The translations under genes were made by a program, and so were the position numbers. The notes below the pieces were generated by a model that was given only the letters and a program-made list of their open reading frames with translations, searched no databases and had not been told where the DNA came from. A stretch of DNA of 64,000 nucleotides, from assembly GCF_002865645.1 (NCBI RefSeq), contig NW_020194684.1, positions 3,477,030 to 3,541,029 on the forward strand. The letters run 5' to 3'. Source of the stretch: Hyaloscypha bicolor E (lineage: Eukaryota; Ascomycota; Leotiomycetes; Helotiales; Hyaloscyphaceae). This document shows, in pieces, positions 12,800 to 48,500 of this stretch (within the stretch, counting starts at the first letter, position 1; each line of letters begins with the position of its first letter).

Positions 12800-15700
12800 A
12801 TTAGGCTAAAAAGCCTTTACCTTTATAATATTAATAATTTACAAGCTGGTACCGAATATGCCCCAAATATTTTAATTCTTCTTTAGTATTATAAGCCACT
12901 TTTCTATTTTATTTTGTATATTTATTATCTGAATACTTACTAATATATATCTGGCCCCCTAGCTTGCGATAGTTATTGAAAAATACAGAATTACGGCCGA
13001 AAATATATATAATTTCGATAAAAAGGGATTCTTGATAGGGTTTAGATATTCCTTAAAGAGAATAATAATATAAGAAGCTTTACGTTTAGGGAGAATTACG
13101 AAAGCTAAGCAGGATAGAAGCCGGGAGTTTATTAGTATCTTGGTATATATATTTGTAATTGGAAAATAGGTACTACTACTTCTAATATATAAAGGCGAAT
13201 CGGGTAATTTAATAAATATATGGGTTAATAAAGTAAAGACAGATTCGATAGTATATTTTACGGTTTTAAGTAATAGATAGTCTAATAATGCAATCGGGCT
13301 AGTATAGCTTCAGAAGGTCTTTAAATGCTATACCAAGCCCAAATATATAATATAAAAGCGTCTTTTAATTATAGATAGATATTTAAGCTATATTAATATA
13401 GTATTTATTAATTAAACTAATTAATATAGTATAATTCTTTTGATTTTACTACCTTATATAATCTATTGCCTTTAATCTCTCAATATTAGCCTTTTCTAAC
13501 CCCTCTTAATATATTACTCTATTAAAATTAATAAATTAATAGACGAAATAATAGAAATAATTAGAATAATAAAAGAACTTTTTTGGCCGAGATTTAAGAT
13601 TGCATTTAATAAAGCTTTTACTAAGGATAATATCCAATTTACTTTTTATAAATCGGGTATCTGGCTAATAGATAGAAGTATAATTATTAAGATAATTAGT
13701 TATTCTATACTCTCTTTACTTAAAAAGACTTAAGAATTACGTATACCTAAGACTTTAAAAGCAATTTATTAATTTTAGCTTATATATAATAAAGAACTAA
13801 CTAAAGACAAAGTCAAGAAACTCTTTTATTACGGTTATTACAATATACGGTACTAGTAGGGGTTAGACTAGAGCTAGCTAGGTATCTGGCATCTATAGTC
13901 ACCTAATAATTATATATAACCCCGACCTTAAGCTAGTATATAGGCCCGTATATAGCTCGCAATTATTTAGATCCGAGGCTCCTTCGAGATCCTCTTCTCT
14001 TTTTAGCTTTAAATCGTCGGAATAGAGACAGTCTAATTATGCCTTCCAGGCCCTAGATCTTATACTTATAATATAATTTAAAGCTTACCCACTTCTCAAT
14101 CCTGCAGAGGATTTAAATAATACCTATCCAATTAGTTTTTTAACGAGTATAGACGCAATACGCTATAGCTACTCCCGTACCGGTTAACTAATATTAGAAT
14201 AAAAGAAAGCCCTAGAATAACTAGGCAAGAAAGCCCTGGACCAGCCAGGCAAGCGAATAGGCTAGTAACTTTACTACTAGACAAAGATCTATAAGAAAGC
14301 AAGTTCCGGAATAACTGGGCAAGTCAGAAGGAGCTATAGTGCGAGATACTACTAGTATACTACTAGAAGATGAACTAGAGCCTCTTATTAAGTCTCTTAA
14401 GGGATCCGAATATCCTATTAATACTTATAATAGGAGAGATACTCTCTTTTAAAGAGCCGAGAAAGAAGAGGGACCTGCCTTATTAAAGGCGAAGTTCTAA
14501 AAGTTATTTCGGAATCTAGAGGCTTTATATAAAGAAATTATTAAGCTAATTCTAAAGATATATAATATCCTTGCCTATAGCGAGAATTATTATAATTAGC
14601 TAAGAGAAACTAAGTAAGCCCTATAAAAGAATAAAGCTATTATTAAGAAGCTTATTATATAGCCTGCCGGAATAACCGGTTCTTCTACTTTAGAAAATAG
14701 ATACTTAGTTAAACTTTCTAACCCTTCTATTTTCGAAGATATAACTAAAAATAGTATTACTTTTAATAATTAATTAATTCAGATTAAGAATAAGCTTTAT
14801 AGTAACTTTAATATCTATTAGATAGAAAACCTTAAGATTATTTATATATCCGGCTATATAGATAGCTATATTCTTATACTAATCTCTTTTTACTTAAACT
14901 AGAATAGTTAATATATATATAAGACTATTAGGGAACTATATATCTATCTGGAAAAGCTATATAGTAACCCAAATAAAGAGTATAATACTCGGTAAGTATT
15001 TAAAAAACTATCTATAAAAAAGGGCTAGATTTTTTAGAAGTTCTATATTCTATTTCTAAAGTATATAGCGGACGGAAATATTAATCTATAGAACCTTAAG
15101 AATAACCTAAATAATAAGTTTACCTGAAAGCTCTAAGAGGCTATAGCTATATACTATAATAACCCGGCTATTTATACTATAGAGTTTGTATAATATTATA
15201 CTATAAATAACTAGTAAATTCGAGCTTGCTATAAAAAGAAAGAATAGATATCCAAGAAAGCTAATAAAGATATAGATAAGTTAAGCCTAGAAAGCGCCTT
15301 TTATATAAAGCCCGCTTCCAAGATTCTAGTAATAGATAAGCCTACTATTCTAAAGCCCGAATTCTTAGATCTTAAGTACTATAATTATAATAGATTTAAT
15401 TATATATCTAGAAACTATCTAGAGCCTAAAATAGAATATATAAAACAAGTTTTAGTAGCTAAGCTAGCGGTATTTATTATAAGTAAGCTATCTAAGGATA
15501 TAGAATAGAGAAATAAAGACCTCTAAAGAAAGTCTTCTTTTTAGGGCTATATTATATAGATATAATAGAAGTTGATTTAAGCTAGCTACTAGAAAGTAAA
15601 GCGTTTATATTTCTTTATATAGTTAATAATAATGAATTAGATATTAAAACTTCTTCTCTTATTAATACCAAAGTAAATAAATATATTTTTATTAATTTTA

Positions 15701-18700
15701 AGTTTATAAAAATAATTAAATAATTTCTAGATATTAAGCCTATTTAATTAGTGTTATCCTATAATATAAAAGGGTTTAATAGCAAGTAGGCCATATTTAT
15801 TACTTACTATATTAAGCTTATATTCTTAATTAATAGACGGAAGGTTCTAGTATTTATACTAATTATAGGGTTAGGTAAATATAATATAATTTTGAGATAA
15901 TAATAGTTTATAAGTACTAGTATCCTAATTAATTATAAGAATAGAAGGTTAATCTGGCCAGATAATTAGCCTAGAAAGAAGGGTTAGGATAAGATCCTAA
16001 CTATTATATATAAGAACTTGAAATCTGGGAAAAGCGACTAGTATTAAGAAGATATAGATAGAAGAGATAAAGCTATAGCTATAGATAAGTTCTAGAGATC
16101 TTAGCTTATAAAGAGGAAATTCTCTTATTTTCTTTCTAAGCCGGGCTTAGAAAGCTATATATAGTAAAAGAATTAAGCTTAATATTATAGAGAAATGCAA
16201 GTAGCCTTAGGGAATATAGAAGTTTCTTCTAAGCTAAAAATAGAGATATTAAAACTATATTATTTAAAGAAAAGCTATAAGATTTAGTTAAGGCCTTTAG
16301 TTAATATTATAGGTATTTTACCGGCCGCTTTTTAGATAAATCTATAGAAAAAGAAGAATCTTTTCTTTATAATATTATTTTTCGAGATTAATAAAAAGCT
16401 AGAATTATAGTAAGAGAATAAGTTTATTCCGGGCAAGTAATAGCTAGAAGAGACAGAGCTATAGTAGCTAGTAAAAGTTTTACTAGAAGAGTTTAAGAAT
16501 TTTATAAATATTTTCTTAAAGAAAGTATTAAATATCTTATTTCTATATTAACTATATAATTATAAGATTTAGATTAATAATTCTAAAGGCCTAGAGAATC
16601 TAAAGTATTTCCTGCTTTATTAATAGTTAATCTATAAGCTATAGAAGATTAAGCGCTTTCTTAAAGAGAATCTCTAATAGGGCTTTATTAAACCAAGCTA
16701 GTTCTTTTTTATATTTCCGATTCTCTTTATAAAGAAAGCTAATAAAGCTTTCCGATTCTATATTAACTATTATAAGCTAAATAATTTAATATAAAAGAAC
16801 TATTATCCTCTCTCTCTTATTTACGAGATTCTTATATAGCTAGCTTAAGCTAAGATCTATATAAAGCTAGATATTTAGTAAATATTCTATTAGATCTAAA
16901 TAGATCTAGAATTAGAAGAACTTATAATATTCCGTATAAGATATAGGGCCTATAAGTATAAAGTCCTTTAGGAAGGCCTAACTAATAGCTTTATTATATA
17001 TTAGAGATATATAAATAATATTCTCTTTAATTACCTTAATATCTTTTATATAGTTTATTTAAATAATATTCTAATTTATTCGGATAATTCCCTAAAGTAT
17101 AAAGACTATATATAAAAAGTTCTTTAGTAGTTATAGAATACTGGCCTTTAAGCGGATATTAAGAAATCCGAGTTTAAAGTTACTTATATAAAGTATCTAG
17201 GCTTTATTATTTCTACTAGAAATATTAAAGTAGATTTAGATAAAATAGCGGTTATTAAAAACTAATAATTACTAAAGATAGTTAAGGAAATATAAGGCTT
17301 TCTGGGTTTTTATAACTTTTATTAGTACTTTATTATAGAATATAGCTATATAGTAAAGCCTCTAATAGCTCTAATATATAAGAGAGTTCCGTTTAAATAG
17401 ATAGATTAGTATTAAGAAGGTTTTATAAAGCTAAAATAAGCTATATTCTTAGTACCGATTCTATATTACTATAATCCGAATCTTTCTATTATAGTTAAGA
17501 CAAATATATTAAATAGAGTTATAGCCGGTATTCTCTTATAATAAGACCTTTAGATAGAACTCTGGTACCTGGTAGTATTCTTTTTTAAGACTATATAGCC
17601 GGTAGAACTGAATTATAATATCTATAATAAAGAGATATTTACTATTATTCTCTTTTTAACCAAATAGCAAGTAGAGCTAGAAGGTCTATAGGAGGCACCC
17701 TTTATAATTTATTTAGACTATTAAGCCTTTAAGTACTTTATAACTATAAAGAAGCTTTTAGTAAAATAAGCTTACTAGGTAAAGTATCTTTTCCGCTACT
17801 ATTTCAAGCTTATATATTAGGTAGGCAAGTCAAATAAATAAGTAAATACTCTAAATAGAAAGTATAAGGATATAATTATCTAGAATAAGGTAATAGTAGC
17901 CTATTAAACCTAAATTCTCTTCCTATAATAAAAGATTAATAATAATATTATATAGGATCTCTAGTTAGCCCTAATTAAGGCTTTAGTAAGCTAGGCTTAG
18001 GAAGAAATCTAGTATAATAGTATCTAGCTAGTAAATAAGCTATTAAATAAGAACCGAGAGTTATTAGAGCTAGAAAAGCTACGGAATAAGGCAAGAAATA
18101 AGAAGGAAGGCACTTAAATATTATAAGACGGCCTTCTTTTATAATATAGTAAACTATTTATATCTAATAGTATAATAATACCCGAAATATCTCTATATAT
18201 TGCCCTTATTTAGGAGATATATATATAGCCTCTAATAGAATATCTAGAATAAGCCAAGCTTTAATAGCTTCTTTAGGCCCGCTATTACTAGCTAGGCTAA
18301 GGTATAGATATTAATTAGTATAGGGATAACTACTATATCTACTAATAATTTTATATTTCTAGAGATAAGAAGCTAGGGCTCTTATATCTATTACTAGTTT
18401 CTGACTGCCTCTAGTAATATATATTAGTGGATTTTAAGAAGTGCCTAGAGAATAGAAATAAGTATAATATAGTAATAATTTTTATTAACTGCCTAAATAA
18501 ATGCTTTATTATAATTTCTATCCGAAATATAGTAATAATTAAAGAGTTAATACCCCTATTTCTTATCTATATAATTTGCTAAGTCGGTATTCCGGAAACT
18601 ATAGTATCTAATTAAGGCCTCTAGTTTATATCGGATTTCTGGAATAAGTTCTATAAATATATTAGTATAAAGCTTAAGTTATTAACTATTAATTATCCCT

Positions 18701-19250
18701 AAACCAATAGCTAGATAGAGATTATTAACTAGTATTTTAACTAATAGCTATATCTCTATATAAATTACTACTAGAATAATTGGGATAAATAGATAGTAAT
18801 AATTAATTACTAGTAGGTAGCTCTGGTCTATAAGACTATAGGCCAATTTCTATTTCTTATAGAGAAGGGCTATAAGCTATAGATATTATTTAACTAGGAA
18901 ATTCAAGTATAATCGGATATTCCGAAAGAAGAGCTAAATAGGCAAGAAGTAAAGGCCCTAATAGTATGACTCTATAAATTATAGTAAAAGATATAAGAGA
19001 ATATAATATAAGTATAAGAGTATTATACTATCTAAGCTAATAAGTACTACTGACTAGTAGACTTTAAAGTAGGAGATAAGGTGTAAATTACTACCAAGTA
19101 CTAGAAGAATAACTATCCGAGCCGCAAGCTGGCTTACTAAATAGAAGAACTATACGAAATTCTGGAATAAGTAGGATATTTCTTTAGGCTTAAGCTTCCG
19201 GAATCTATAAGAATATATCCGGTATTCTATATAGAGAAGCTATATAAGGA
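12800..19250. other. Continuous RIPed, AT-rich block
   Basis: Within these approximate limits TpA is strikingly enriched and CpA/TpG depleted on both strands, and CAA and CAG codons of the transposon genes are mostly TAA and TAG. The block starts inside the left half of the Fot-like element and ends about 430 bp before the right LTR, so its edges do not follow element boundaries. Limits are judged by eye. Confidence 0.7.
13827..14073 (+). repeat. Left LTR of the Gypsy element, strongly RIPed
   Basis: 247 bp, aligned end to end with 19681-19927. CACGTG in the right copy is TATATA here, and most other differences are C-to-T or G-to-A in CpA/TpG context. The left end reads TATTAC where the right LTR has TGTTAC. 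Confidence 0.9.
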
Positions 19251-22044: not shown

Positions 22045-23916
22045 TCATCTCTGTAGCCTAGATCTCCAGAATACAAACTTTCTCAAATTGCTTGACCATC
22101 TCTTCTTCTTCGGAATAATCAATACTGCGGGCTTCTCTTCCGGAGTTTGCGGAAGACTCTCACTCTCCTCCCAAGGAAACTTTATAATCATCACTGGCTC
22201 TTGATCGATGCCACTAAAGATATCGTCCTCCTTCGCTGTGGGTCTGATTTTCTTCCCATACAGCACGGCTAATTCTTCAGCCTGTTCCTCTTTCAGCTGT
22301 GCATCTCTCACCCTCTTCTCTTTCTCCATCTGATCTAATCGCTCTGCCTGTCTCCGAAGTTCTTGGGGCGTCTGCTCCCAGTGCTTCTCTATTTCGTTTG
22401 CTCGCCTCCTCCCAACCTTCGCCTCGAGTTTCTAGCGTATTAATTGCTTGACCTCCAAGGCCTCTTCTGGGAACTTTCGCCCGAATGTCTCGTCGATAAC
22501 GGTTACCGCTGGAATCTGCTAGCCGTTCCAAGAAAGTCGAGCTTCGGGATTCGCTCCAGCACTTACGAGGAGTTTCATGGTTTCTAGCACAGGTAGAAAC
22601 AGCTCTTGCCTGTCGCCGGACTTCAGTGGACGTAAGCCGTCGTTTTCGTAGCAGTATTGTAAGACGTCTGTCCATGTCGTATTATTTCCAAACTCAAGAT
22701 TAGGATCTGCACCGTATTTAAGAAGTATCGCAATGAGCTTCGGGTTCCTAGGCCGCGAACCCCAGATTTCTCGAGGTTTGGGAGCTGCAGCATAGTTGAG
22801 TAGTGGGCGTCCAAGTCGAGTTTTCACTGGTTGTGCATCCTGATCCAGCTTCCATTCCACATAGAGATCCAACCCGTAGGAGACCGCTAACGACAGGAAT
22901 GATGGCTGGGAGTCGTACACAAATTGGTGAACGTGAGGCACGACTTTAACCCAAGCATAGCTACCCTCTTTGTGATATACAGTTCTGTTGCTGGTGACGG
23001 TCCAGTTGAACCACAGGTCGGTCGCGGTCTGGCAGAAGTTTTCCATCAAAGAAGCTTGCACCTGACCGGAAGTTCTCTCAGCTTGCGCTGCGTATTCCAT
23101 GAACTCCCCGGCTAGTAAGCCAAAGGTTCCAACGTCCCATTGCAAAGTGTTGAGGACTTTCATCTGAACCAAGTAGGAACGCATCAGGGAGATATCTGGA
23201 TTGAAACTAGGATCGGATTGAGAGGCGATTGTCTTCCAGATATCTGGGGTGTCCAGGAAGTCTTTAACAGTTCGATGCAGGAAATCGACTTTCGAATCTA
23301 CCAGACGCTCTTTGTCGCTTGATACTCGAACTTCCAGAAGGCCTTTGCAACGGCTGTTTACCCGTCGTACCGTCTCCTCATATCTCCATGACAACTCTTT
23401 TTCATCCAAAGGATCCAATTTCGCTCTGATAGCGAACTCCGGGTCTTCATCATCATCGGCGAACGAGAGCGAGAGCACGGATAATGGGAGTCGTGCTCGA
23501 TGGACTATTTGAAAAAGTTGTGAAGCTTGCTGCTGGTAGAACTTGTCCAGTGTGTTCATCATCAGGAGATACAAGTCTTCGAGACCTGCTGGAAGGGCTC
23601 GTAGGCGTTTCTGGAGATCCGATATTCTGTCCGAGTTTTGTAAACCCTCGAGCAATGATTTGACAACAAGTGTCACCCACAGAAACACGCCTGCTGATTT
23701 GTCGACAATCTCTGTAACGAGTTCTGGGGCACGCTTTGGCTCTCTCATTTTGAGGATCTCGAATCTGGGACTTTTCGCAAGCTCGATATCGGTGTAAAGT
23801 TTAATGTCGTTTTGCGTCAAATTCTGAAGCTTCAGGTTCGGATATTTCCCAAAACCGTCTTCAAAAGCTAGGAGAGGCCTACTAGAAAGGCACATTTTGA
23901 CGTTGGAAGAAGCGGC
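22045..23916 (-). pseudogene. NACHT-ankyrin NTPase, C-terminal half (severed)
   Basis: Minus-strand continuation of the gene whose N-terminal half lies at 29802-31219. It begins at AASSNVKMCLSSRP (about 23873-23914), the segment that follows Walker B in fungal NACHT proteins. It then runs through LQNLTQNDI, the winged-helix-like region (AGVFLWVTLVVKSLLEGL), an HRTVKDFL motif, and ankyrin-like repeats ending KYGADPNLE and SAGANPEA. Two in-frame TAG codons (22519-22521 and 22432-22434) lie where the coding sense clearly continues. The distal part to 22045 is a charged coiled region (ELRRQAERLDQMEKEKR) and a Pro-rich tail. There is no ATG of its own at the 5' edge; the sequence upstream of 23916 belongs to the inserted segment. 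Confidence 0.85.
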
Positions 23917-24477
23917 TACCCTGTTGCATGGCAACTGTGCTCCAGTCACGTGCAGGCCCACGTGACCACATTCACTGTATTTAAGCTCTGGCCACCCGTG
24001 CCATACCTCCTTTCCTCTCTTTATCGAATATATACTACTTACACCCGCATTTACTGCAACATACCCCTTGGAACAGCTTGACAACTTCTGTGTTATTACC
24101 CTCATAATCTCAGACGACAAGTGACTTCACTAAAGTCCATTTCCGTCTTTGGACCTGAGCAGTCGCTGCTCTAACCTGAGCTAAGCCCTGAGTCCTGAGC
24201 ACGCTAGTGAGCCAGCTGGATTTTGTTCAAGGGTCCCATTCCGGTTCCTTGCGGATCGGCTATAGTTTCTATTATTTTGAGGTGATCGTTCTAGACCCCC
24301 AGGTCTATTTTGATATTCGGAGTACTACAATTACGAGTGTATCGGTTTAGAATACTATAGCTCGTAGTACTTGCCTTTACAGTATAACACTTACGCATAT
24401 TACAAAATGGATCATGCGCCTTACTTTTACTTTAAGCCAGAGTAGTCAGGGTAATCGATCGCAGTTTTGTGATAATC

Positions 24478-24790
24478 TACCTAAATTTCGGCTCCTTCAT
24501 TTAGGTGAACAGCCGCATATGGACATAAAATATAAACTCGTCGAAACTCCCTTTATTACTACTAAAATGATGCCCTACATTATGATCTCCTATCACTGGA
24601 ATTATAGGAACAAAGTGGAACCCTTTTGACAGGGGAATATAAAGTTCCTGTCTCAGAAGGCGTCTTTTCCATGCTCAATTCCCTATCGGAGGCCGAACGC
24701 TGTCACCTGTGGTATTGCCCTGGGTATTCTTAGGTTAACGCTATTTACTTATATATCAATCAATACCAAAGGAAATCCCACGCAAACTCG
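24478..24790 (+). pseudogene. HET-domain relic
   Basis: Decayed N-terminal part of a HET protein. It reads FRLLHLGEQ, DIKYKLVE, then PYIMISYHWNYRNK, which correspond in order to the RLL, Cys/Leu-Glu and ALSYVWG blocks of HET domains. After a stop and a frame change it continues with KVPVSEGVFSMLN and a block resembling the DAICINQ motif (NAIYLYINQ) near 24732-24760. Frameshifts and stops are present and nothing recognisable follows. It lies on the same strand as the intact HET gene downstream and within the same inserted segment. Confidence 0.5.
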
Positions 24791-25242
24791 AGGTCTGGCC
24801 TTCCATATTCTGAGGGGTTTCGTTCCAGGCATTTGAGCAGTGGATAATCACTAGCGAACAGATGCGCCAGCGTCAGGGGCGCCGAAGCAGATCCTTGTCA
24901 GAAAAGTTCACCGGCTAATAAATGCCCACACCACTTAGACGCCCAAAAATCCATTTAACTACAATAATGACAAACACACAGAGGAAAATAAATTGATGCT
25001 TGTGATCTGCAACCCAGTTATAGTAACTTTGCAATTTTTCAGAATTTTCTAAGCACGTTTAAAGAATCACGGGTTTCGGTGTTCTGCCAGGGGTACAAGT
25101 CGGCTGTTGCCTGGTGAAGTCTATTTCTGGAAATTTTCTACTTATCCCTTCGTCCGGTGAGACATGGTCCGTACGAGCAGGGGGACCTGGCTCAAGGCGA
25201 AAACGCGTCCCTTTACGCAGGTGCAGGCCCTAATGTTGGTTA

Positions 25243-25796
25243 CGAGCCTGCGACCATGGGTCTGTGCGCACAGGGCATTTTCATCAAAAAATCACGAAAG
25301 TTAGGTATTAAAGTAGCGTTTAATTAGGAGTTGACTACCCATGCCGCTACTCTCCCCCCCCTAATTAAATGTAACAGTGGGTCCCCGCAAAACCAGCCTG
25401 GCACGGTCCAGTTGCCATACCAAAAAACCCCTGCACTTGGACCCACTGTTACATTTAATTAGGGGGGGGGGAGAGTACATAAGTACTTGTACCCAATGCT
25501 CTTGCTTTAAAATCAGCTTATTAGGGCGTCGTCATTCTGGGTAAGGGTAGCTAAGGATCTTGCGGACCGTGGTATCGCTGAGCTTGTATCGTACTATTAG
25601 GGCGCAAACGGGGACCTTTCCAAACCAGCGAAGCTGGCGCATAGCCTCCTTATGTTTCGTAGGGATCTCATAGCCTTTCTCGTGCTGAAAATTGAGCGGT
25701 GGGGGTGTGTTCAGGGCTATGGTGGGTTGTTTAGGGGGCTGGTTAAGTGAAGCCTGAAAAAGCGCCTGTGCGCACAGACCCATGGTCGCAGGCTCG
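25243..25796. mobile_element. MITE A, CGAGCC ends, TTA target duplication
   Basis: Inverted arms CGAGCCTGCGACC and on through GGGTCTGTGCGCACAGG, at 25243 and ending 25796. The 3-bp duplication TTA lies at 25240-25242 and 25797-25799. A 3-bp TWA duplication is characteristic of the PIF/Harbinger superfamily. Length is 554 bp including nested element D. A relative with matching arms sits at 50709-50979. Confidence 0.85.
25350..25475. mobile_element. MITE D, 126 bp, nested in MITE A
   Basis: Arms CTCTCCCCCCC then TAATTAAATGTAACAG at 25350 and the reverse complement ending 25475, flanked by TA on both sides (25348-25349 and 25476-25477). The arms of about 35 bp occupy over half the element, and the C/G run differs in length between arms. 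This is the innermost of four nested layers. Confidence 0.82.
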
Positions 25797-25864
25797 TTAC
25801 ACCGCCTTTGCAGGGGTTGCGCTGAAATGCCCTGTAGTAATGCGCTGTAGCCGACTGTTGCTTA

Positions 25865-26126
25865 CGAGCCTACGGACCAAAGTCCGTGTTTTTAGCGATA
25901 TTTACAGGTATCGCAAAACCAAAGTCGCCACATTCACTTTACAATTTCTTAACAACTATAGATTGAAACTTTACATAATTCAAGAGGATACGATAAAGGA
26001 AGCTAGAATGAATTTAGAAAGCCTTAATAACTAATTTTGAATATAAAAGAAAAGCATCCAAAATAGTTATGGGGTTCGATTCTTAGCGAAATGCCCTAAA
26101 AACACAGACTTTGGTCCGCAGGCTCG
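25865..26126. mobile_element. MITE B, CGAGCC ends, TTA target duplication
   Basis: 262 bp with arms starting CGAGCCTACGGACCAAAG at 25865 and the reverse complement, with a few transitions, ending 26126. TTA duplication lies at 25862-25864 and 26127-26129. It shares the terminal CGAGCC with elements A and C but differs further in, so it is a second family of the same PIF/Harbinger-like type. It sits in the unpaired centre of MITE F. Confidence 0.83.
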
Positions 26127-26633
26127 TTAGCAGAACTCAAGGCGGTGTAACAAACATTAGGGCCTGCACCTGCGTAAAGGCACGCGTTTTCGCCTTGAGC
26201 CAGGTCCCCCTGCTCGTACGGACCATGTCTCACCGGACGAAGGGATACCATCCATTGAAAATGAGCGAAATCCGTGTCGAAAATCAGGGGCTGTGCCCCA
26301 CTTTTAAGTGGAGATGTAATTTCCAGAGTTTTAAGGGAGCTTGAGCTTTCCCAAAAAACACCACAATCAAGATTCAGTTCAACAATCCGAATCCTCAAAA
26401 TTCTGCCAGCCTTGACGAGGACCAATGAATTGGTCGCCTTATTTGACGCTTAGGTATCAACGAATGAGGATCCCTTTCCGGAATAGCGGCTGACTAGTTC
26501 TAGATCTTGACTCCAACCAACACTTTTGAACCAAAGCGCTTCATCTCCCCTACACTCTACAGACCCACGAAGGATCAGACCCGAATTCTCCACTATACAA
26601 GCATCCGCATTCATCTTCATAGTCTCAGAAACC

Positions 26634-28481
26634 ATGTCCGGTCAAATTTATATTCCACTTCCTACCGCCAACTCAATACGTTTGCTGAGGCTAGCGCCTG
26701 GATCCAACGATGACCCTATTACTTGTGAGCTGGAGATTTTCTCGCTCAACGAAGCACCCACCTATGAAGCCCTATCTTATGTTTGGGGTAATCCGCAGCC
26801 TGCAGCATCAATCCTGAATCGTGGCCTTGCTCAAACGGTCACTCCTAATCTAGAGAAAGCTCTCAGGCGGCTTCGACTGCCAGACCTCGAACGGGTGGTC
26901 TGGGCTGATGCAATCTGCATCAACCAAGAGGATATACATGAACGAGAGTGTCAGGTTTTATTGATGCAAGCTATCTACAATCAAGCGTCAAAGGTTCTGG
27001 TATGGCTTGGGGATGATGAGTTTGGTCAAGCAGAGAAGGCCTTAAGAGTTATTGACTTAGCTTCGGGTTGGTGCATGACCGAGACAAACGCAAATTCCTT
27101 ATCGGAAATTGATTTTGACTTGGTCAGTGAGCCGACCCTCATCCAACGAGCGGGCTATGGTTCGCTGCACGCTACCAGCTTTTTGAGCGGTTTTCTTGGT
27201 ACTCCAATGTGGGAGTTCGACATAATGAGGGTCGAAGTAGAAAAATGGGCTTCCCTACGCTGGCTTTTGGAACGTCCTTGGTTTTCAAGGACGTGGATCA
27301 TCCAGGAGGTTGCATTTGCAGATTCCATAATAATGATTGGCCAACATGAGCTCGAATGGGACCAGCTTGCCATTGCTACAGCCTGGCTTGATCGGAAAGC
27401 CTACCCCCCGAATCGTACTGGCCAGGATACACAAAATATGAGACGCATACGAGCAATTTATGCCTGCAGTCCAAGACGAAATATGGGGGTTCGCTTAGAG
27501 CTCGCAGAAGCATTGGAGCTATTACGAGGCTTCGATACATCCGAGATCCGGGACCGAGTATATGCCGCTGTTTGTTTGTCTAATCAAGAAAAACTAAACC
27601 ACTCGCTACTCAAACCAAGCTACTCTAGGCCAATTCCGGAAATATTCACAAATGCAACAGAGTATGTAATACGCAATCCGGGTTCGAGACATGCCCAGTT
27701 GGATATTTTGTCATCTGTTACCGGAGAGCGCAATGTGCTGGATGGTTTTCCGTCCTGGGTTCCTCGTTGGGATGAGAAACCACGTACATCAGAACTGTGG
27801 GTCACGAATATCGGCTCTCGATGGAATGCATGCGCAAGCAAAACAAGCGAAAATGTCTCTGTGAGTGATCGAAAAGGTCTGGTTGTTGAAGGCATACGCC
27901 TCGGAACAATTCAATTCGTAGATGACCGGCTTTCTGGCTTGTCAAGTACCGAAGAAAACCTAGTACAACAGCTATTTGAAGAAAGAGTTGCCAATCTGAG
28001 GAGTTATGGACCCTTTGAGAACCTAGCTGAAGCATTTGCCCAGACGATTACTGCGGGTTCGAGCCGAAATTTTGATGCAGGCGGCGGAAAAGGAGAATCA
28101 TTCCACTGGCAGGATCTAGTATCATATTTTGCGTGGCCGAGGTCAAAGGAAGAGAGAGACCGAATGTCAGAATCACATGCAGAGCGGATGAGGATAATGC
28201 AGGAGACGTCCAATTTCGAAATGTCGATTAAGACAAACCATTCGTTCTTTGTATTAAACAACGGATTGATGGGAATGGGTCATTGTAGTATCAAAGAAGG
28301 CGACGAAGTCTGGATACTCTTTGGAGGTCGGTTACCTTATGTACTGAGGAGTTTCAGGGACCACTACCAATTCCGACGTCAGTGCTATTTAGCTGGATGC
28401 ATGGATGGGAGTCCCGTTACTGCTTGGGAATCTGGTTTGTATCCAGAAGACTTGGATAAAAAAGAGATTGAAATTTGTTAG
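26634..28481 (+). CDS. HET-domain protein (heterokaryon incompatibility type), intact
   Basis: Intronless, 615 aa from the ATG at 26634 (MSGQIYIPLP, context aaaccATGT). The frame is open 36 codons further upstream from a TTG, but no ATG lies there. The HET domain spans about residues 10-225, with all three signature blocks: YEALSYVWG (44-52), WADAICINQ (90-98) and RPWFSRTWIIQE (214-225). The C-terminal part ends with the block SFFVLNNGLMGMG, then GDEVWILFGGRLPYVLR, typical of long fungal HET proteins. In studied fungi, HET domains drive cell death after allorecognition, usually together with NACHT or STAND partners. Here the gene sits inside an insertion that broke a NACHT gene. No frameshift or internal stop is present. 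Confidence 0.93.
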   Translation: MSGQIYIPLPTANSIRLLRLAPGSNDDPITCELEIFSLNEAPTYEALSYVWGNPQPAASILNRGLAQTVTPNLEKALRRLRLPDLERVVWADAICINQEDIHERECQVLLMQAIYNQASKVLVWLGDDEFGQAEKALRVIDLASGWCMTETNANSLSEIDFDLVSEPTLIQRAGYGSLHATSFLSGFLGTPMWEFDIMRVEVEKWASLRWLLERPWFSRTWIIQEVAFADSIIMIGQHELEWDQLAIATAWLDRKAYPPNRTGQDTQNMRRIRAIYACSPRRNMGVRLELAEALELLRGFDTSEIRDRVYAAVCLSNQEKLNHSLLKPSYSRPIPEIFTNATEYVIRNPGSRHAQLDILSSVTGERNVLDGFPSWVPRWDEKPRTSELWVTNIGSRWNACASKTSENVSVSDRKGLVVEGIRLGTIQFVDDRLSGLSSTEENLVQQLFEERVANLRSYGPFENLAEAFAQTITAGSSRNFDAGGGKGESFHWQDLVSYFAWPRSKEERDRMSESHAERMRIMQETSNFEMSIKTNHSFFVLNNGLMGMGHCSIKEGDEVWILFGGRLPYVLRSFRDHYQFRRQCYLAGCMDGSPVTAWESGLYPEDLDKKEIEIC

Positions 28482-29801
28482 TACATAGTTATCCTTTAGT
28501 CATTCACACAATTATATGCTGACTTTGAGCAACACCTGAGCAAAACTGAGTAGACCTTGAGTAGATCGGGAGTAGCCTGAGGCACAATGATTTTGACCAT
28601 GAACAAGCCTGAGTAAGCCCGAGCAAGCGTGATTCAGGCTGAGCAAAATTAAGCTGAAGTTGAGCCGAGTAAGGTTTTGCCGATGTAATGGGCCAAAAGC
28701 AACTAACCCAGTTAGGTGTATGCCAAGAGTAGATTTGACTTGGAAATAGCGAAATATTATAATGACTTAAGAATAGTATATCAAGAAATGTAAAATAGAG
28801 AATAGAAGAGTATCGATTAGTTTATTAAAGTTATTTGACTGTTAGATACGAATATTATACGAAAGCTAGCCGCCGTATTGCAACGGCTGTAACAGAGTAG
28901 TCAAGGCATTGTAACCGCACGAAACACTCAGGGCTGCGTAGAGGCATATGAGAATGCAAATCGGAGACTTGTCAGAGTATATTCATAGGCTAGCTACGAA
29001 AGAAAATAAGAATATATAAAAGAAAATAGGGAGCTTAGCCCTAGGTTACTATTCTATAAGAGAAATAAGATTATCCTTCGACTAGTATCTGAATCGGCTC
29101 CGACCCTGTTTCCTAGAGATCCGCGCAGGGACTAATTCCATCTTCGCAGTCGTTATGGTGAACTTTCGGTAGGCTTGTCCTCACACGTATTACACCCTGA
29201 ATTTGCGTCTTTCACACCAACCATTCTGTCACGTGCTGTGTACAGGCATATTTATAGCTTCTTCACCGCCATTAGGGCTCCATCATTCATGCACAAACAT
29301 ACCAATATACACCCATTTCCACCCCCGCAGCTTGTCCAGGCCGTGACACATTCGCAGTTTCGTATTTCGAACAGTCACAAGCACCGAGGACTCTTCTCTG
29401 CCAGGCTAATAGTGCGTTTGCATGTAAGTGACAACAACATGCCAAAAATTAAGTTGTCTACTGGAAAGGCAAGCAAATTCGGACTTGTAGATGGAGATAG
29501 AGTCTAGTAGAAGAAAGAATAGATTAAAAATATGAGAAGGAGCACGATGGCATATCCTCACTTGGAAAGACCCAAAGCGATTCCATATTGTAGGAAGAAT
29601 CTGCCTCGAGACATAAAGAGGCCCTGTTTGGGTGCCCTAGGGAGCCGAATTCGTGCCCCTCAATACAGTCGTTTAGACTTGCCGACTTTTGTTCTGCATA
29701 ACCGAGTATTAAATTATCGATTGGTAATTAGAGGCGAGAGCAAGAACGTGACTGAGCGACCTGAGCAGAGGGTGAGGCGAGGGTGAGTAGCGCCTGAGTA
29801 G
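28482..29801. other. Non-coding distal part of the HET-bearing insertion
   Basis: No gene recognised. From 28525 to 28670 there are about ten irregular copies of CTGAGCA/CTGAGTA-like words, which recur at 29740-29800 next to the right edge. 28740-29060 is AT-rich. A minor open frame at 29175-29507 has no recognisable domain. Confidence 0.5.
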
Positions 29802-31219
29802 AGCGGCGATGCTGACTAACCGAGACTGGAGAAAAAAGACAAAAACATCGTCTGGGATTACCATCGTATTCATCGAGCCCGTCAACAAAAAAGCAAAACT
29901 TTGCAGAGACGCCGTCTTGTTTAAGCAAGCGATCGAATCCTTTCATGAGCTCCATTCGACTCCAGGGATTCATGTCATCTCCGAAGAAATCGTAAGACCG
30001 CCAGCGATAGGGGAATATCAGAGGAATTAACTCTTCGCATTGAATGAGTGATTCGTAAAGGAGAGACTGAAGAAGACCAGTCTGAGACTTCTGCATTGAC
30101 GTTCCAGAGTTCCAGAAGTAATAGCTCGCGGTGATGAGGGGCATATTTCCTGCCCAGCGTTCTAGTAGTAACCGAGACTTCGGGTTGTTGTATATGTACT
30201 TCATCAAGGTCGACTTTCCAGATCCAGCTTTTCCACTTACCCAATAGATCCCATTTCCCTGCCGAAGCCATGTTTTGAAACAGCTCCAGCTTTGGTCGGC
30301 GGTTACGTTATAAATCCAGTCAAAAGTCGCATTGTGAGCGGCAACTATCTCTTCTTGCCTGTCGGACATGCTCATAAAGCTAAGTCGGTGCAGGAATCTC
30401 TCTCGCAGGAAAGCAATCCTCTCCTGCTCCACCATATCTGTAATCCTGACTGAGAATTCCGCCACATGCATTGGATTATCCCCGTGCCATTGATGCTCCT
30501 TGATAGCCCTTATGATTGCTTGTTGGTTTGTCTTGTTGTCCGTGCGGATTTTGTCCAGAGTTTCGTGGATATCTTGCGTGTTTGAGTCGAGCGCCTTGAA
30601 GCCGTCGGACTGCTTCAAAGCCGCGTCGTTGATGCTAGTCCTATGCGCAATATCAGCGAGTGCAACTCTAATAGCTTGTTTGAAAGACTTTTCACCTCAA
30701 AGATATCAGAAGCTCAGTGTCTAGTGCTTTCCTGCACTCTGTGAGCTTAGACACTGCCTTTTGTATTTGATCCTCGTCCCAGACGGTCTTGAGTGCCATC
30801 CTGAAACTTTTCCATTTGTTGTTATTCCCTTCCACCTTGAACATTCTTAGAATGCTGATTAAGTCGCCTGCTACCTCGCCACATTTGGCATTGATTTCCC
30901 CAAGCTCTATCTCAGCACGATTTTCCGGGGTGTAATCTCGAAGTGTGAAAGCTCTCTCTCTCTCAGCTTGTTTGCTAGAGACATCGTCTCGGAGTTTGAT
31001 GGCCTTGACGGGTGGGAGTAGATGGCGGTTCATGTCTGTTCGCAGTCTTTCGGTCAATCGATTCAAATTAGCTGCAATAGCTTCTAGATCCTTGTTCCCG
31101 ACCAGAGCTCCATCTGTAGACTTATAGAGTTCATGACTTTTGGACATCAATTTGACGGTGAAGTCGACGAATTGCACGATATTGCCAGCCACACCCAATG
31201 CGGTGAGTGGATCGAGCAT
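29802..31219 (-). pseudogene. NACHT-ankyrin NTPase, N-terminal half (severed)
   Basis: Starts at ATG 31217-31219 (MLDPLTALGVAGNIVQFVDF), the N-terminal domain common in fungal STAND proteins. One 55-nt intron (30641-30695) has a GTGAAA donor, CTGAT branch site and CATAG acceptor. The NACHT core follows: P-loop GKAGSGKST at 30208-30234 and Walker B FCFFVDGLDEYDG at 29860-29898. Right after Walker B a one-base shift is needed to continue in the sense that joins the C-terminal half, so the gene carries a frameshift as well as the insertion. Sensible coding ends exactly at the AGCGGC repeat at 29802-29807. Both catalytic motifs look intact, so a truncated NTPase fragment could still be translated. 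Confidence 0.85.
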
Positions 31220-41990: not shown

Positions 41991-43078
41991 ACCGAAGTCC
42001 CTATCAAAAGCACGACCCCACTAAAAGCACGTTTTACATAAAAATAGTTTAATTAATTAAAAGATAACCACTTTATAAAATAGTCTAATTTTTCAGATAT
42101 GAGATCTTTCAAGTATATAAAATACACTTTATATATTATATAATCAAAATACTTAATATTTCTTAATATAAGTTTTATATTATATATTATTATAAAGTAA
42201 AAAAATTATAAATTTACTATTTTATAATATTTATATTAAGATATATATTAAAATTCTATATATTATAAGTATAAAAAGCGTAATTATAAAACCAATAATT
42301 TAAATTCTTAAATTTTTAATTTTAAATAAAAAGGTATTTATAAGATATAAAAATAATATAAAAAGTCATATATAATATTTTATATAAAAACTCTAATTAT
42401 TAAAGCTCTATATAAATAAATATAATAAATATAATAAATATATATATTATTAATTATTTAATATTAAATTAATATATATAAGAGGTTCTTTATTATATTT
42501 ATTTAATTATATCTTAAGTTTGTATTTATAATAAAAAGTTTATATTATTTTTATTAATATCTTATAAATTAATAGTAATTAAGAGCTTTATATATTAAAA
42601 AAAAAAAAGCTTATATAAAGTTATAATAAAAATATTATTCAAAGAATATTTAATTAAAAGCTATTAAAATAACTATTAGTTTAAAGACATTGTAATTATT
42701 ATATAATATTATTAATAAAGTTAATATTATTAGTTTTTTATAATATATTGAAATAAGATATTTTTAAAATTATAAAGTTAAATATATAAAGAATTCTTAA
42801 TAAAGATTAAGTAATAAATAAAATCCTTATATATAATTTTTATACTATTTTATATATTTATTATTAAAATATATTAAAAGTTAATAAATAAAATAAAATA
42901 TATATCTTTTAAAATATTTTCTTTAATTATATAAAATACTTTATTATTATATTATTATTTTATTTTATTATATATAGAGAGCCTATGAAATGAAATCTTA
43001 TATAAAACGGATTTATAGTTATCTAATTATTAAGAAATAAAAAATTCGCTAAATCGTGCTTTTGGTAGGGAGTTCGGT
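41991..43078. mobile_element. Fully RIPed relative of the Fot-like transposon
   Basis: The TIRs (ACCGAAGTCCCTATCAAAAG at 41991 and the reverse complement of ACCGAACTCCCTACCAAAAG ending 43078) match those of the element at 12388-20685. TA lies at both ends (41989-41990 and 43079-43080). The 1.0-kb interior is almost devoid of C and G and holds no readable frame. It is either a shortened copy or a MITE of the family, erased by RIP. Confidence 0.85.
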
Positions 43079-43634: not shown

Positions 43635-45535
43635 ATGTCGTCTGATGCTATGGGAAAGAAAGAAAAAGGGGAATCCAGCGGCCTAACGAGCTTGAAAGTT
43701 CCCCTTTTTCGTCGGCGCGCAAAGTCAGATAGCAATATCCACGAGCTCAGCGAGTCGCAGGACCAAACTCCCAACCGCTCGCGATCAAATTCCACTGCCG
43801 ATAAGGATGGGAACGAGGTCGTTTCCATTCCCTTTGGAGGGAAGAAGCCCAACTTCGTCAAACGAAAGTCTGGGAAGGAAGCCGTTCGCAGTATGATTGA
43901 GAAGGTAACGCGGTTCTCGGATGACATCGCCGCAATGGCCATCGATATCAAGGAGGACACCATGGACATATCGAAGACGGTCGTCGAAGAACGTGGCTTC
44001 AAGCGCCAGAAGAGATTATGCAAAGACTGCTCTAAGATGAACTTTGAGGAATGTCTTCCTGGCGATGGACTTACACCGGGCCGAGAGATATACGAATACG
44101 TTCGACCACTTGAGCGAATTATTTTGCGACGCGAATGGTGTATATTTTGTCGTCTTATCTTCCAGGTCCTGTGTCGTGAAGAGAATGACCCTTTGCTCCA
44201 TGACCACGTACAAGACTACATTCAGACCAGTCTCAAGGGAGTATCGTTTGGCGATTGGGTTGCAAAGGCGACCCTGCTGAAAAGAATGTTCAACAGCGAA
44301 GCAGTTTGGCCCTTTGGACTCAGCCGGGAAGTACCTGACGGCGAAGCCGAAGTACAGAAATTGTTCCACCCTGTTAATAAGAACGACGAGTCGGCATTGA
44401 ACGCAACCAGTCCGATCATGGCCAAAAGCTCTCCGCTTTTAGATGATATTCCAGATAAGTTCCTTCTTGGTGCTTTGGCGGCGGCGAAGATCACAATATT
44501 TGGAGGCGCAGGTATGAGGGAGAGAGATATGAGGATACTTGAAGGAGTGGACGGAGCGTTGACAGCTGCAACGATTTTCTCCGGAAACAAAAGGAAGCGA
44601 CTACCTTGCTGGGTATTAATCAAGTTGCATACACGAGCCAGTAGTGAAGCTGGGCTAATTGCAGTCCATGTCGCTGCACACAACCGGGAGCTCTTGTCGC
44701 CGCTTGCTGAAATAAGCAGGTTTCATCTTAGGGTTGCTACAGGAATAGTCGAGCAGTCTGAGTCTGGATCAACGCTGCGGTACGGCAGAATCCTAGAGAA
44801 GAAGATCGATCTCTCCCTTGGAGGAAAGTGGTTGAGTGCCTGCGAAAATCATCACAGGTGTGGCCCTTTTCCTCCCCGCGGAGAGCAGCGGGGATCTCAA
44901 GTCGCGTATCTTCGGGTTATTGACTTAAAGAAATATCGTCTCTATACGTGTACCTCGGAAGTTGTTCGATATGCCGCTCTGAGCTACGTTTGGGGTGACT
45001 ATACATATGCCAAGCTGGATAACAGAACTATTAATAAATACTTCAACGAAGGAGCTCTTGCACCAGAAAAAGTCACTCTACCACAAGCTATTATAGATGC
45101 AATGGAGGTAGCCCGAGGGGTCGGCCTCTAATACTTATGGGTCGATGCCTTGTGTATAAAACAAGATGATAAAGGCGAGAAAGAGATACAGATTGGACAG
45201 ATGGACAAGATATATGCGACCGCGGTTGTTGCCATCGTTGCAGCTGATGGCAAGAATGCCAATTCTCCCTTGCAAGGCGTTTCCACGGAACGCGAAATCG
45301 ACCAGGTGGTGGCAGAGGTCCGACCTAATGTCAACGTCCTCATTCCGGTTCCTACTAGGAAAAGTCTAGCGTGGATGCTCCAAGCGAAACTACTCTCGAA
45401 TCGTCTGATTGTATTCAGTGGAGGCAATATGATTTGGCATTGCCACGAGGTTGTTCATTTCGAGGACATGACTGCGAAGGATGCGGTGGCAATCTTGGAC
45501 TCACACCTGGGCCATCCTCTATTGAAATCCTCAAT
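43635..45535 (+). pseudogene. HET-domain gene with one nonsense codon, lacking its own C-terminus
   Basis: Opens at ATG 43635 (MSSDAMGKKEKG). A basic, Ser-rich N-terminus is followed by a Cys-containing segment (RLCKDCSKMNFEEC) and the HET domain (YAALSYVWGD near 44970). At 45129-45131 an in-frame TAA interrupts the middle of the domain, and the next codons read YLWVDALCIKQDD, the second HET block, in the same frame. A single C-to-T change at a CAA codon, in the CpA context favoured by RIP, explains it. The third block (AWMLQAKLLSNRL) and WHCHEV then EDMT follow. After EDMT the frame passes without a stop into sequence of another family (next entry). Either the original HET C-terminus was lost, or this is a fusion gene. 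Confidence 0.8.
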
Positions 45536-48500
45536 CAGAACACTGACGAATACAGTGAGAAGTAGTACCGTTTCGGGGCCTCAGTCAACTGCTCCGACAT
45601 CAATAATTGATGTCGTTCCATCAAATGGTCCCAAGGTTGTGGCATTGCAGCGACAAATTACGGAAGGCACTGCCTTACCTGCTATTAATGAGGATCTAGC
45701 GCAGGTGGTGACGCAAGATACCAATGGAGACGGCCAGTCGACGATTTCCTTCGTGACTATGCTACCTTCAGCTCAGAGGAAAGATATTGTCAGAAGGTTC
45801 ACCGAGGCTATCCTGAAGTGCCTTCCTGGGCAATTACTCGGATCCCATAGCAGCCAACAATGGAGGGTTCCATTTCGGCATCGCTTTCAGCTTTTGCTCA
45901 AGAACTATTCCGTGCAAGTTAAGAACGATGCAGGCCAACGAAGCCAAAGACAAGCCGCGAAACAGATTAGACTTTTGCGCCGCGATATTTTAGAGAATTT
46001 CGAAGAAGCCCTGGAGGGTTGTGAAACGAGGCGAGCACAACAAAACCTCGCCAAAGAGAACTTGAAGGGACTCGCACCCGAGTCGACATGGGCGGAGAAA
46101 GTAGGATCATGGTATACAGTATTGCCCGACGAAGCCTCACTGGATGACGAACTTGCCGGCGCTCAACACGAGCGAATACCCAATCGCATAGACCTGGATG
46201 CTGAAGAAACGAAATGGGTTTCAAATTTCGGATCGCTATCCGATTTCGATTGCACAGACTCGAGCAATGGTAGCGAGATGGAAGAACTGATCTATAGAAC
46301 CCTAGGACAGGACAAAGATATTGAGACGTTTCTTATCAATCACCACGCTTTCCAAGATCTCATCGCTGACATTCGGACTTTGCTCGAACATTATCACGAG
46401 AATCAGCTGAATCTTATTCGCAAGCGTATAATGCTTAGTCTTCGAAGACCAATGAAAAAATCTAAGTACGGCCAGTAAACCCTTTTCAAGACTTTCCGTT
46501 CCATTCTTCCTATCCGCTCGAACACCAAACCAACGCTAATCGGATGACAGCAACCGACAGCCAAAATGTCATGCCGCCATGTTTGATTTCGATTGGGATA
46601 TAATTAGTTTCATCCAAGAGCAGTACCCCCTTGGTCTTGACCAGGAGGTGGATTCGATTCTGACAATCACTGGTCGGGGAACAGATGCATACATGTCCAC
46701 GGTTCGCACTTATCTGCAGCGCACATGGCCTGCATACTCTATGCACTTGCTTAACTCGCTTCAAGGAGCGATCAATAGTTATCCACGACAGGATGACTCA
46801 GGAAGTAAGCATTTTTCTATTTCATACTCCATTGTGCTCAAGAACCATCACGCCAAGATTCGCAAACGTGGCGTATATTGAGCTCATTTCCTCCCGGTTC
46901 TTGACGACAACATAACAAGACGAGCTGATTTAACCAAATCTTCAACTGAAAGCGCAAGTGCTCTTACTACCAATGCCCAGGGTATCCTGTAACAGCATGA
47001 TGCCCTGTCTTGTCTCTTACCTGTTCACCAACTATGGCGCTCATCTTCGACTCATTTCTTCCAGTGCCTGCTCCTTCCGCTAATTCTGCCATAGCTATCT
47101 TATTTACCGCCCCAGGAAGTGGTATCGTTGTCAATCTCGTTGAATAATCTCTCCTAGTCACCGGGAGTGAAGAGTTCATTGTCGCTATAGCACAGCAAAT
47201 TGCCTGGATCACCTCTGCTTGTCGAGTATCACCACTTGGACTGGGATATTCTTACGTGACGTTTCAAGAAACTTCATCGAGATTCGATGTGCCTTTACGT
47301 ACCTTTCACATAGCTAGCGAGCTGTGTCCCCTCACATCGGACGACCCTGGTAGTTGCTGGAATGAAATTGTCGGAAATTCCACCATAGCCACCGGATTCC
47401 CTATCCCAGAGCGTTCGAACAACGAGAAAGGATTAGAGCTTCCACTTGAGGTCATGGCTGGCCTTGGTGGAGTTCCCCTAGCTACACGGTTCCATAATGC
47501 CTACATCTTGACAGGCAGATGTATAGCATTTGTGCCAGTGGCGCGCAATGGTGACTCAGTTCAGTGGCATGTCTTGAAAAACGGACAAGCAACAATCAGA
47601 TATGAAGACATCGCTTCTCTTTGTCCAGTTCGCTTGCCAGCTGAAATATTAAATGAAGAGGATTTACTGTCCACGAGGACGTTTCTAGGATGGTGTTCTG
47701 AATCGATGAATCATCTTGGTAAGCCATACGTACAAAGACATGGACCTGACTGTTCCGACAATCAACTGCATGTATCACGCTAACACTACTCCGTCTCCTA
47801 GGAGCATCCAGCTTGCAGTCCAATAGTATCGGATTTTCTAATGCAAAGTCGCCAGCGAAACTGAGCGTCAAGTTAACCTCGGGAAGTGTCGGGTTTGGAA
47901 AGATTGGTACAGGCCAGTTGACTTTCTCTTTTGGGAAGCATAGTGGTTCATTCACCTCCGAAAAGCCAAATTACTATTTGGAGACTCTCGACTATGCAAA
48001 ACAGATCCACGTCATTCTCCAGGACACGGCACATCGACGTGCGTGGCTGACTGATGGTGAAAGGGCAATTCTTCACATCATCTTTCACGCCCAGAGGATG
48101 GGCTCATGTGGCATTGGAGGCAAGGATATTGAGCTACAAGGTGCAGATCCGAAGTCACAATCTTCTGTACGTGCAGCGATGGTTGCCAATGCCAATGTCG
48201 TTGTTAGGCGTGACTATTGTATGGGCAAGGATGAAGTCGGCACGCAACGTTTCAAAGATTTGGTTGGAGATCTATACAGTCGCCTTGAGGTCTGTCAAGC
48301 CAATGCCAAAGGTGAGACGGGGGCTGGAATAGAGCTCAAGATGTCGCGGAAAAGGCAGATTCGAGGCTACGAGTTCATGGATCTGGTTACGAAGAGACGA
48401 GAAATGTTTCTGAAGGAATTCAACTTGAGAAGAGCTGTGGAAATTGGCCTGAGTTCGCTCGAGACATTAACGCTCTCGTGCTTCTAGGGACAAACTTTGG

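What the first reader, a model, noticed from the sequence alone, without database searches (positions are those of the whole stretch)
23911..29807. A 5.9-kb segment carrying an intact HET gene is inserted, with a 6-bp direct repeat, into a NACHT-ankyrin gene
AGCGGC occurs at 23911-23916 and 29802-29807. On the minus strand, codons leading to the right-hand repeat continue without loss into the AASSNVKM...CLSSRP block at the left-hand repeat once the segment and one repeat are removed. The host gene halves are collinear and same-strand. The insert has no LTR, no obvious TIR and no transposase, yet carries a full-length HET gene and a HET relic. A mobile element that moves an incompatibility gene and destroys an NLR-like gene in the same step would be a new route for reshaping the allorecognition repertoire. 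I also considered that the HET pair was already a local cluster and the repeat is chance: a 6-mer match at the exact codon junction makes that less likely but not impossible.
Basis: partly seen in the sequence, partly recalled or inferred. Interest (0 to 1): 0.88.

Follow-up and report, generated by a model that had tools for sequence, protein, structure and literature searches.

The report
Mobile cassettes carrying fungal self-recognition genes
In a root-associated fungus, a small mobile DNA element carrying an intact self/non-self recognition-type gene has jumped into and broken an immune-receptor-like gene, and related elements elsewhere in the same genome carry other such genes, which suggests a way for fungi to shuffle the genes by which they tell friend from stranger.

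Summary
A 5.76-kb element (24101-29856) interrupts an NLR-like NACHT gene and is flanked by ATTACC (24095-24100, 29857-29862), not AGCGGC. Leaving out the element and a separate 140-bp solo LTR gives one open frame, which aligns without a gap at the junction to 10 of 10 homologues aligned (best: Lachnellula, 79%). The AGCGGC join is out of frame.

Both ends belong to a repeat family (49 left-end and 40 right-end pattern hits; reversed-pattern controls 0). Most insertion sites read YTWCC and some copies abut end to end, which fits site-specific, tyrosine-recombinase-like integration. No enzyme was found.

The ends are shared, the cargo is not. Of nine paired-end stretches of 3.6-9.4 kb, five carry a HET-domain gene and one an ankyrin NLR (0.69 expected by genome density). 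The HET cargo proteins compared are 23-36% identical in their best local match.

The organism is Hyaloscypha bicolor E. I read this as a captain-less, cargo-swapping family that moves allorecognition-type genes. Strain-level empty sites, activity and a recombinase were not shown, and some end pairs may be chance neighbours.

The parts
24101..29856 (+). HET-carrying mobile element (5,756 bp, about 4.5 kb without the nested insertions)
   Evidence: edges fixed by the ATTACC repeats, restored host frame and copies elsewhere
24095..24100 (.). left direct repeat ATTACC (host target, GGTAAT in the host frame)
29857..29862 (.). right direct repeat ATTACC
24101..24277 (+). left end 'B' of the repeat family; starts CTCATAATCTCAGACGAC
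   Evidence: 40 of 89 candidates scored; 49 pattern hits, 0 in control
29594..29856 (+). right end 'A' of the repeat family; ends CATCGTCTGGG before ATTACC
   Evidence: 40 of 183 candidates scored; 40 pattern hits, 0 in control
26634..28481 (+). open HET-domain gene, 615 aa, no intron needed
   Evidence: PF06985 6.5e-30; full-length 92% relative P0121; highest-scoring other match in own genome 37% over residues 6-390
24733..24824 (+). possible relic of a second HET gene
   Evidence: 72% over 92 bp to a HET ORF in L039; weak
25143..26247 (.). later nested TIR DNA elements (TA at both outer ends; smaller TIR elements inside)
   Evidence: inverted repeats I1-I4; edges; relatives in L050
29227..29348 (.). 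solo LTR nested in the element, flanked by CATTC
   Evidence: (hits at query 740-878)
23922..24061 (.). separate solo LTR (140 bp) in the host gene, flanked by TACCC; not part of the element
29863..31219 (-). 5' half of the broken NLR-like host gene (start to NACHT/NPHP3_N; intron 30641-30695 inferred by comparison with P0001)
22045..24094 (-). 3' part of the host gene (rest of NPHP3_N, DUF7791, tail), cut by the solo LTR and with two in-frame TAG codons (22519-22521, 22432-22434)
   Evidence: the public model P0004 splices around both TAGs

Best explanation
24101-29856 is one copy of a family of small, captain-less, cargo-swapping mobile elements. Copies share about 180 bp at the left end and 230-270 bp at the right end, with short inverted arms. 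Between the ends lies an allorecognition-type gene (a HET-domain gene or an NLR) in six of nine paired-end cases, and other DNA in the rest. They integrate at a YTWCC core (mostly TTACC or CTTCC), which ends up on both sides. The mechanism I infer is this. A recombinase supplied in trans, most likely a tyrosine recombinase of Starship/Crypton type, joins the two ends into a circle, making a site of inverted arms around a 6-bp spacer that begins with CC. It then recombines that site with a chromosomal YTWCC, including the one at the end of a resident copy, which gives tandem arrays. Here the target lay in an NLR-like gene, so one event added a HET gene and broke an NLR gene. Shown: the insertion, its repeat and edges, the restored host frame, the shared ends, site preference, end-to-end junctions and diverse HET/NLR content between paired ends. 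Inferred: the circle, the tyrosine recombinase, mobility of the cargo as one unit in copies other than this one, and any effect on incompatibility.
For: Family: 49 left-end and 40 right-end pattern hits, reversed controls 0. Site: YTWCC beside 17 of 22 left ends and 14 of 18 right ends read (tallied by hand). Seven right-end/left-end junctions abutting within about 3 bp in the fetched loci. Cargo: HET in 5 and NLR-ankyrin in 1 of 9 paired-end stretches, against 0.69 expected (P 8.4e-5); HET also inward of a left end in L038. Six cargo HETs, all 15 pairs: 22.9-36.3% identical in the best local stretch, while their left ends are 57-83% identical. Arms of own ends match better than swapped ends in the 7 of 9 elements tested: 91 of 5,040 permutations as good.
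Against: None of the 9 ORFs of 90 aa or more in the element is a recombinase by Pfam, and none of 38 DUF3435 places lies within 12 kb of an end found by pattern; other recombinase families were not searched. The left arm is not significantly similar to any of 10 captain upstream regions. Three of the nine paired-end stretches enclose no full HET/NLR: L052 (macro-domain ORF and others), L036 (no Pfam match), C5 (only a short HET-like fragment). Extra end fragments lie inside the L052 and C5 stretches, and the L046 right end is truncated. L051 and L036 have ends of different subfamilies, and the two repeats differ in L036, L049, L050, L051 and L052. Some pairs may therefore be chance neighbours or recombinants. 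HET-like ORFs also lie just outside ends in L039, L043 and L048. HET genes may be clustered, which the Poisson test ignores. Some site counts are not independent because a flank is a neighbour's end. Cargo orientation varies. Only the window copy has an empty site proven by a reading frame.
Confidence: 0.7

Rival explanations
1. Non-autonomous DDE (cut-and-paste) transposons with unusual target choice: short TIRs, a 5-6 bp target duplication, and cargo captured between two ends.
For: Short TIRs and a 6-bp duplication around the window copy; several other TIR families are present in the same region, and DDE transposase ORFs occur nested in other copies.
Against: If the TIR starts at TAATCTCAG, the bases directly beside it on the two sides do not match: the repeated core stands 4 bp further out on the left and overlaps the arm on the right. 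The core is nearly fixed (YTWCC at 17 of 22 left ends) and copies abut exactly, which is unusual for DDE elements (recalled).
Confidence: 0.2
2. Small MITE-like copies of the ends landed on both sides of pre-existing HET/NLR genes in gene clusters; the HET gene is not cargo.
For: Many ends are unpaired; a 0.4-kb mini copy exists (L042); L051 and L036 ends are mismatched; the genome has 785 HET candidates; HET-like ORFs also lie outside some ends.
Against: In the window the HET gene lies between the two ATTACC repeats inside a gene whose frame is otherwise continuous, so it arrived after the gene existed. L049 has an 18-bp matching inverted arm at its two ends and L050 a near-match.
Confidence: 0.12
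3. A mini element landed in the NLR gene first and the HET gene entered that element later by another route.
For: The element has collected at least two later insertions (nested TIR elements, solo LTR).
Against: HET or NLR genes recur between ends of other copies. (repeats of 14 bp or more) shows no repeat pair bracketing the HET gene alone, although a short duplication would be missed.
Confidence: 0.1

Closest known systems
Starship elements (captain DUF3435 tyrosine recombinase), Hephaestus family
   Same: Direct repeats of a few bp, short TIRs, a TTAC-containing site, gene cargo. PMC12153272 (passages read) gives TTAC(N7)A for Hephaestus and TTACA(N5)AAT for Nebuchadnezzar. The left junction here reads TTACC(N5)AAT in 9 of the 9 left ends (of 22 read) that have TTACC (rows). 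One putative NLR as Starship cargo is on record in PMC12134995 (passage read).
   Different: No captain found; 3.6-9.4 kb, while PMC12153272 discarded elements under 15 kb; tens of end copies; mostly single-gene cargo. In the window the empty host site itself reads TTACCATCGTATT, so only the TTACC half fits.
Cryptons
   Same: Recalled: tyrosine-recombinase DNA elements of fungi with short direct repeats and circular intermediates.
   Different: No recombinase found in the window element; gene cargo and short TIRs present, two points in which PMC12134995 (passage read) contrasts Starships with Cryptons.
Bacterial integron gene cassettes (recalled)
   Same: Mostly one gene per unit, a recombination site at the unit edge, tandem units, cargo of one functional theme.
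   Different: Eukaryotic; two conserved ends and not one attC site; no platform or integrase found.
het-d/het-e NLR repertoire of Podospora (PMC1805685, passages read)
   Same: HET and NACHT genes; diversified and RIP-inactivated members; one NWD pseudogene preceded by a transposon relic.
   Different: Diversity there comes from repeat shuffling and mutation; the passages I saw describe no element carrying HET genes.

Membership tests
Starship | DUF3435 captain at the 5' end | tested here: not met
   One search lists 62 DUF3435 matches; of 38 places standing for them, none lies within 12 kb of a pattern-found end; no Pfam recombinase among the 9 ORFs of 90 aa or more in the window element
Starship | size of about 15 kb or more | tested here: not met
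   3.6-9.4 kb in the 9 paired-end stretches
Starship | direct repeats of 2-12 bp from a target motif | tested here: met
   ATTACC on both sides in the window and L040; imperfect in L036, L049, L050, L051, L052
Starship | Hephaestus target TTAC(N7)A in the empty site | tested here: inconclusive
   9 of 9 TTACC left junctions fit; the window's empty host site fits only TTACC
Starship | termini like those of captain elements | tested here: inconclusive
   0 of 10 captain upstream regions significant; in 2 of the 7 with an estimated element start (L061, L062) the best hit fell at that start
Tyrosine-recombinase element (general) | recombinase gene in an autonomous copy | tested here: inconclusive
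   none found for this family; in the genome only DUF3435 was searched
Tyrosine-recombinase element (general) | circular intermediate | not testable with these tools
   inferred from ends and end-to-end junctions
DDE TIR transposon | duplication directly beside the TIR on both sides | tested here: not met
   4 bp between repeat and left arm, overlap on the right
LTR retrotransposon | paired LTRs at the element ends | tested here: not met
   only unrelated solo LTRs, one outside and one inside the element
HET-domain protein (cargo) | PF06985 above cut-off | tested here: met
   104.8 bits, cut-off 22.5
Fungal NLR (broken host gene) | NACHT/NPHP3_N NTPase plus repeat tail | tested here: inconclusive
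   PF24883 and PF25053 (DUF7791) over cut-off; PF05729 NACHT just below its cut-off; no repeat tail over cut-off in the window, ankyrin (PF00023) in some homologues
Vegetative incompatibility gene | causes cell death on fusion of unlike strains | not testable with these tools
   a HET domain alone does not show this

The most novel reading that the evidence does not exclude
A eukaryotic counterpart of a gene-cassette system: small circularising cassettes, each with mostly one HET or NLR gene between standard recombination ends, inserted at TTACC/CTTCC sites and stacked in tandem, so that a trans-acting recombinase continually adds, breaks and re-sorts allorecognition genes and may pass them between species.
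Probability: 0.2. Interest if true: 0.95.

Novelty: new variant of a known kind. Interest (0 to 1): 0.8.

Why it matters
This genome alone has 785 HET and 295 NPHP3_N first-look candidates, and how such genes reach new loci is an open question (recalled). A transposable cassette with standard ends and interchangeable HET/NLR cargo would explain gain, loss and dispersal in one step. It also makes a testable prediction: each cassette should be polymorphic between strains at a YTWCC core. The same ends offer a handle for finding such genes in other genomes.

Tried and rejected
Rejected: AGCGGC as the target duplication (frame breaks; inside a repeat family). The ancient HET cluster: the 10 homologues aligned have no gene there. 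A DUF3435 captain next to the ends: none within 12 kb among 38 places compared with pattern-found ends. Homology of the left arm with captain upstream regions: not significant in 10 of 10. A first left-end pattern had its spacing one base off and is not used: 8 hits against 3 in controls. The corrected pattern gave 26 hits against 10 in controls, so it is not used as a count.

Position controls: HET top-150 list: 7 within 6 kb inward of pattern-found ends and 3 outward, 2 of the 3 outward being inside a tandem neighbour; expected about 0.5 per side for each kind of end. NLR top-150: 5 inward and 2 outward over the pattern-found ends and 17 further left ends, both outward ones being inside a tandem neighbour. 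One gene can be counted from both ends (4 distinct NLR genes inward), and only 150 of 785 and 150 of 295 candidates were scored. Rows dropped: of 10 end pairs under 10 kb, the 0.3-0.4-kb pair in L042 was set aside before the count of 9; P0004 and P0007, which match only the 3' half of this gene at 99-100%, were left out of the alignment; L012 repeats L040 and was dropped from the right-end tally.

Literature: the listings (at most 20 of 28, 20 of 32 and 12 of 204 papers shown) show no paper on HET genes carried by small non-autonomous elements. I saw matching passages only of PMC12506042, PMC12153272, PMC12134995 and PMC1805685, and listings of the rest. Most subscription papers are not in the library.
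Full report
WHERE IT IS. The window lies at C70:3477030-3541029 of an 82-Mb, 76-contig genome. A protein that matches the 3' half of the host gene at 100% is named Hyaloscypha bicolor E and sits on a contig of 6,473,820 bases, the length of C70 (P0004). The fungus is, from memory, an ericoid and ectomycorrhizal root associate.

THE REAL EDGES. One search lists 40 matches to this stretch, itself included and many partial (40 of 79 candidates scored). It lies in the host gene. Beyond it, host sequence continues to 24100. The shared flank is ATTACC at 24095-24100 and 29857-29862.

PROOF OF THE EMPTY SITE. The NPHP3_N domain then reaches its last position (11-164 of 164, 76.8 bits), against 11-137 (63.4 bits) in the right half alone. 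Ten homologues, chosen from the best 12 of 2,995 (P0004 and P0007 left out because they are the 3' half of this gene), align without a gap at the junction. The best, from Lachnellula subtilissima, is 79% identical over 98% of the query and reads DGLDEYDGDHREVVKLFQGVAASSSVKMC where the host reads DGLDEYDGNNTEVVKLFQGVAASSNVKMC. The host gene is broken three ways: the element, the solo LTR, and two in-frame TAG codons near its 3' end. The public gene model P0004 splices around those two TAGs, but the homologue P0001 has coding sequence there.

WHAT THE ELEMENT IS. Its two ends are repeat families. Pattern searches with up to 3 mismatches found 49 left ends and 40 right ends, with 0 in the reversed-pattern controls. 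The bases just outside are YTWCC at 17 of 22 left ends and 14 of 18 right ends read in fetched loci (tallied by hand); some flanks are a neighbour's end, so these are not all independent. The arm tends to change with the core: all 9 TTACC left ends continue N5-AAT, while 3 of the 4 CTTCC left ends continue TCTAAAGTCTCA (L010 is the exception). If an element's own ends were joined through one core they would give inverted arms around a 6-bp spacer that starts with CC, for example in L049 AATTGTCGTCTGAGACTT-CC-TATA-AAGTCTCAGACGACAATT. In the fetched loci, seven right ends run directly into a left end (L040 twice, L041, L042 twice, L050, L051). Integration into the end of a resident copy explains this; random insertion does not.

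CARGO. Ten places have a left and a right end in the right order less than 10 kb apart; one of them, about 0.4 kb (L042), is set aside. In the other nine (3.6-9.4 kb) HET domains lie inside five: the window, L040, L046, L049 and L051. L050 holds an 840-aa ORF with NPHP3_N and ankyrin repeats over cut-off. The other three are L052 (a macro-domain ORF and two larger ORFs without a Pfam match), L036 (a 364-aa ORF without a Pfam match) and the C5 pair (a short HET-like fragment; one kilobase of it was not read). Extra end fragments lie inside the L052 and C5 stretches and the L046 right end is truncated. From 785 HET and 295 NPHP3_N first-look candidates the expectation in these 52.5 kb is 0.69, against 6 seen (P 8.4e-5). 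This ignores clustering of such genes, and candidate counts are not gene counts. HET also lies inward of a left end in L038. By position alone, NLR domains lie about 3-4 kb inward of ends at C14, C36 and C19. Against this, HET-like ORFs also lie just outside ends in L039, L043 and L048. Six cargo HETs compared in all 15 pairs are 22.9-36.3% identical in their best local stretch, some of which are short or not significant, while the left ends are 57-83% identical over 164-176 bp. Outside the ends, the six interiors compared share only stretches of 48-290 bp at 69-86%. So the ends stay and the cargo changes.

THE WINDOW'S HET GENE. It is 615 aa and open, with a 92% identical full-length relative (P0121) in another data set. 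In its own genome no other match above 50% identity was listed (71 of 480 candidates scored). Its donor is therefore probably not a present-day close paralogue here. Since landing, the element has taken up nested TIR elements (25143-26247) and a solo LTR (29227-29348). The 8 other ORFs of 90 aa or more in the element have no Pfam match at E 0.01.

MECHANISM. A nearly fixed core, end-to-end copies and inverted arms around a short spacer point to site-specific recombination rather than cut-and-paste transposition. In PMC12153272 (passages read) Hephaestus-family Starships use TTAC(N7)A, or TTACA(N5)AAT. All 9 left junctions here with TTACC read TTACC(N5)AAT. Against membership: no captain found, small size, and an empty host site that fits only TTACC. 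A direct comparison of the left arm with 10 captain upstream regions was not significant. The genome does hold DUF3435 genes, many with several stops and a few open, so a trans-acting recombinase is possible but unproven.

LIMITS. Only the window copy has an empty site proven by a reading frame. Ends of L051 and L036 belong to different subfamilies, and the two repeats differ in L036, L049, L050, L051 and L052. Some pairs may be chance neighbours or recombinants. No strain comparison, expression or activity data were available.

Noticed in passing
window 13001-19000 and 42001-43000: AT-rich blocks (GC 0.24-0.31 and 0.106), possibly RIP-type decayed repeats.
   Followed up: no
window 45132-46475 (+): A second, weaker HET-like ORF (E 2e-10 with a home-made profile).
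   Followed up: no
L050:5301-6595: A fuller relative of the nested TIR element of the window (25237-25800), carrying a 175-aa ORF with a DDE_3 domain (PF13358 2.4e-9).
   Followed up: partly
L051:4254-5042 (-): A 263-aa ORF with a DDE_Tnp_1_7 (piggyBac-type) domain (PF13843 6.4e-22) lies inside a HET-carrying paired-end stretch.
   Followed up: partly
L048:4108-4557 and 5801-7204: The right end of another copy abuts an ORF that looks HET-like by eye, a second ORF has PF06985 at 9.4e-8, and a NACHT/NPHP3_N ORF lies inward; this copy may itself have landed in a HET gene.
   Followed up: partly
G000:C51:2033550, C28:40436, C28:897808 (-): DUF3435 (Starship captain) genes still largely open, among many with multiple stop codons.
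   Followed up: partly
own genome: 785 HET and 295 NPHP3_N first-look candidates, a large allorecognition-type repertoire.
   Followed up: no
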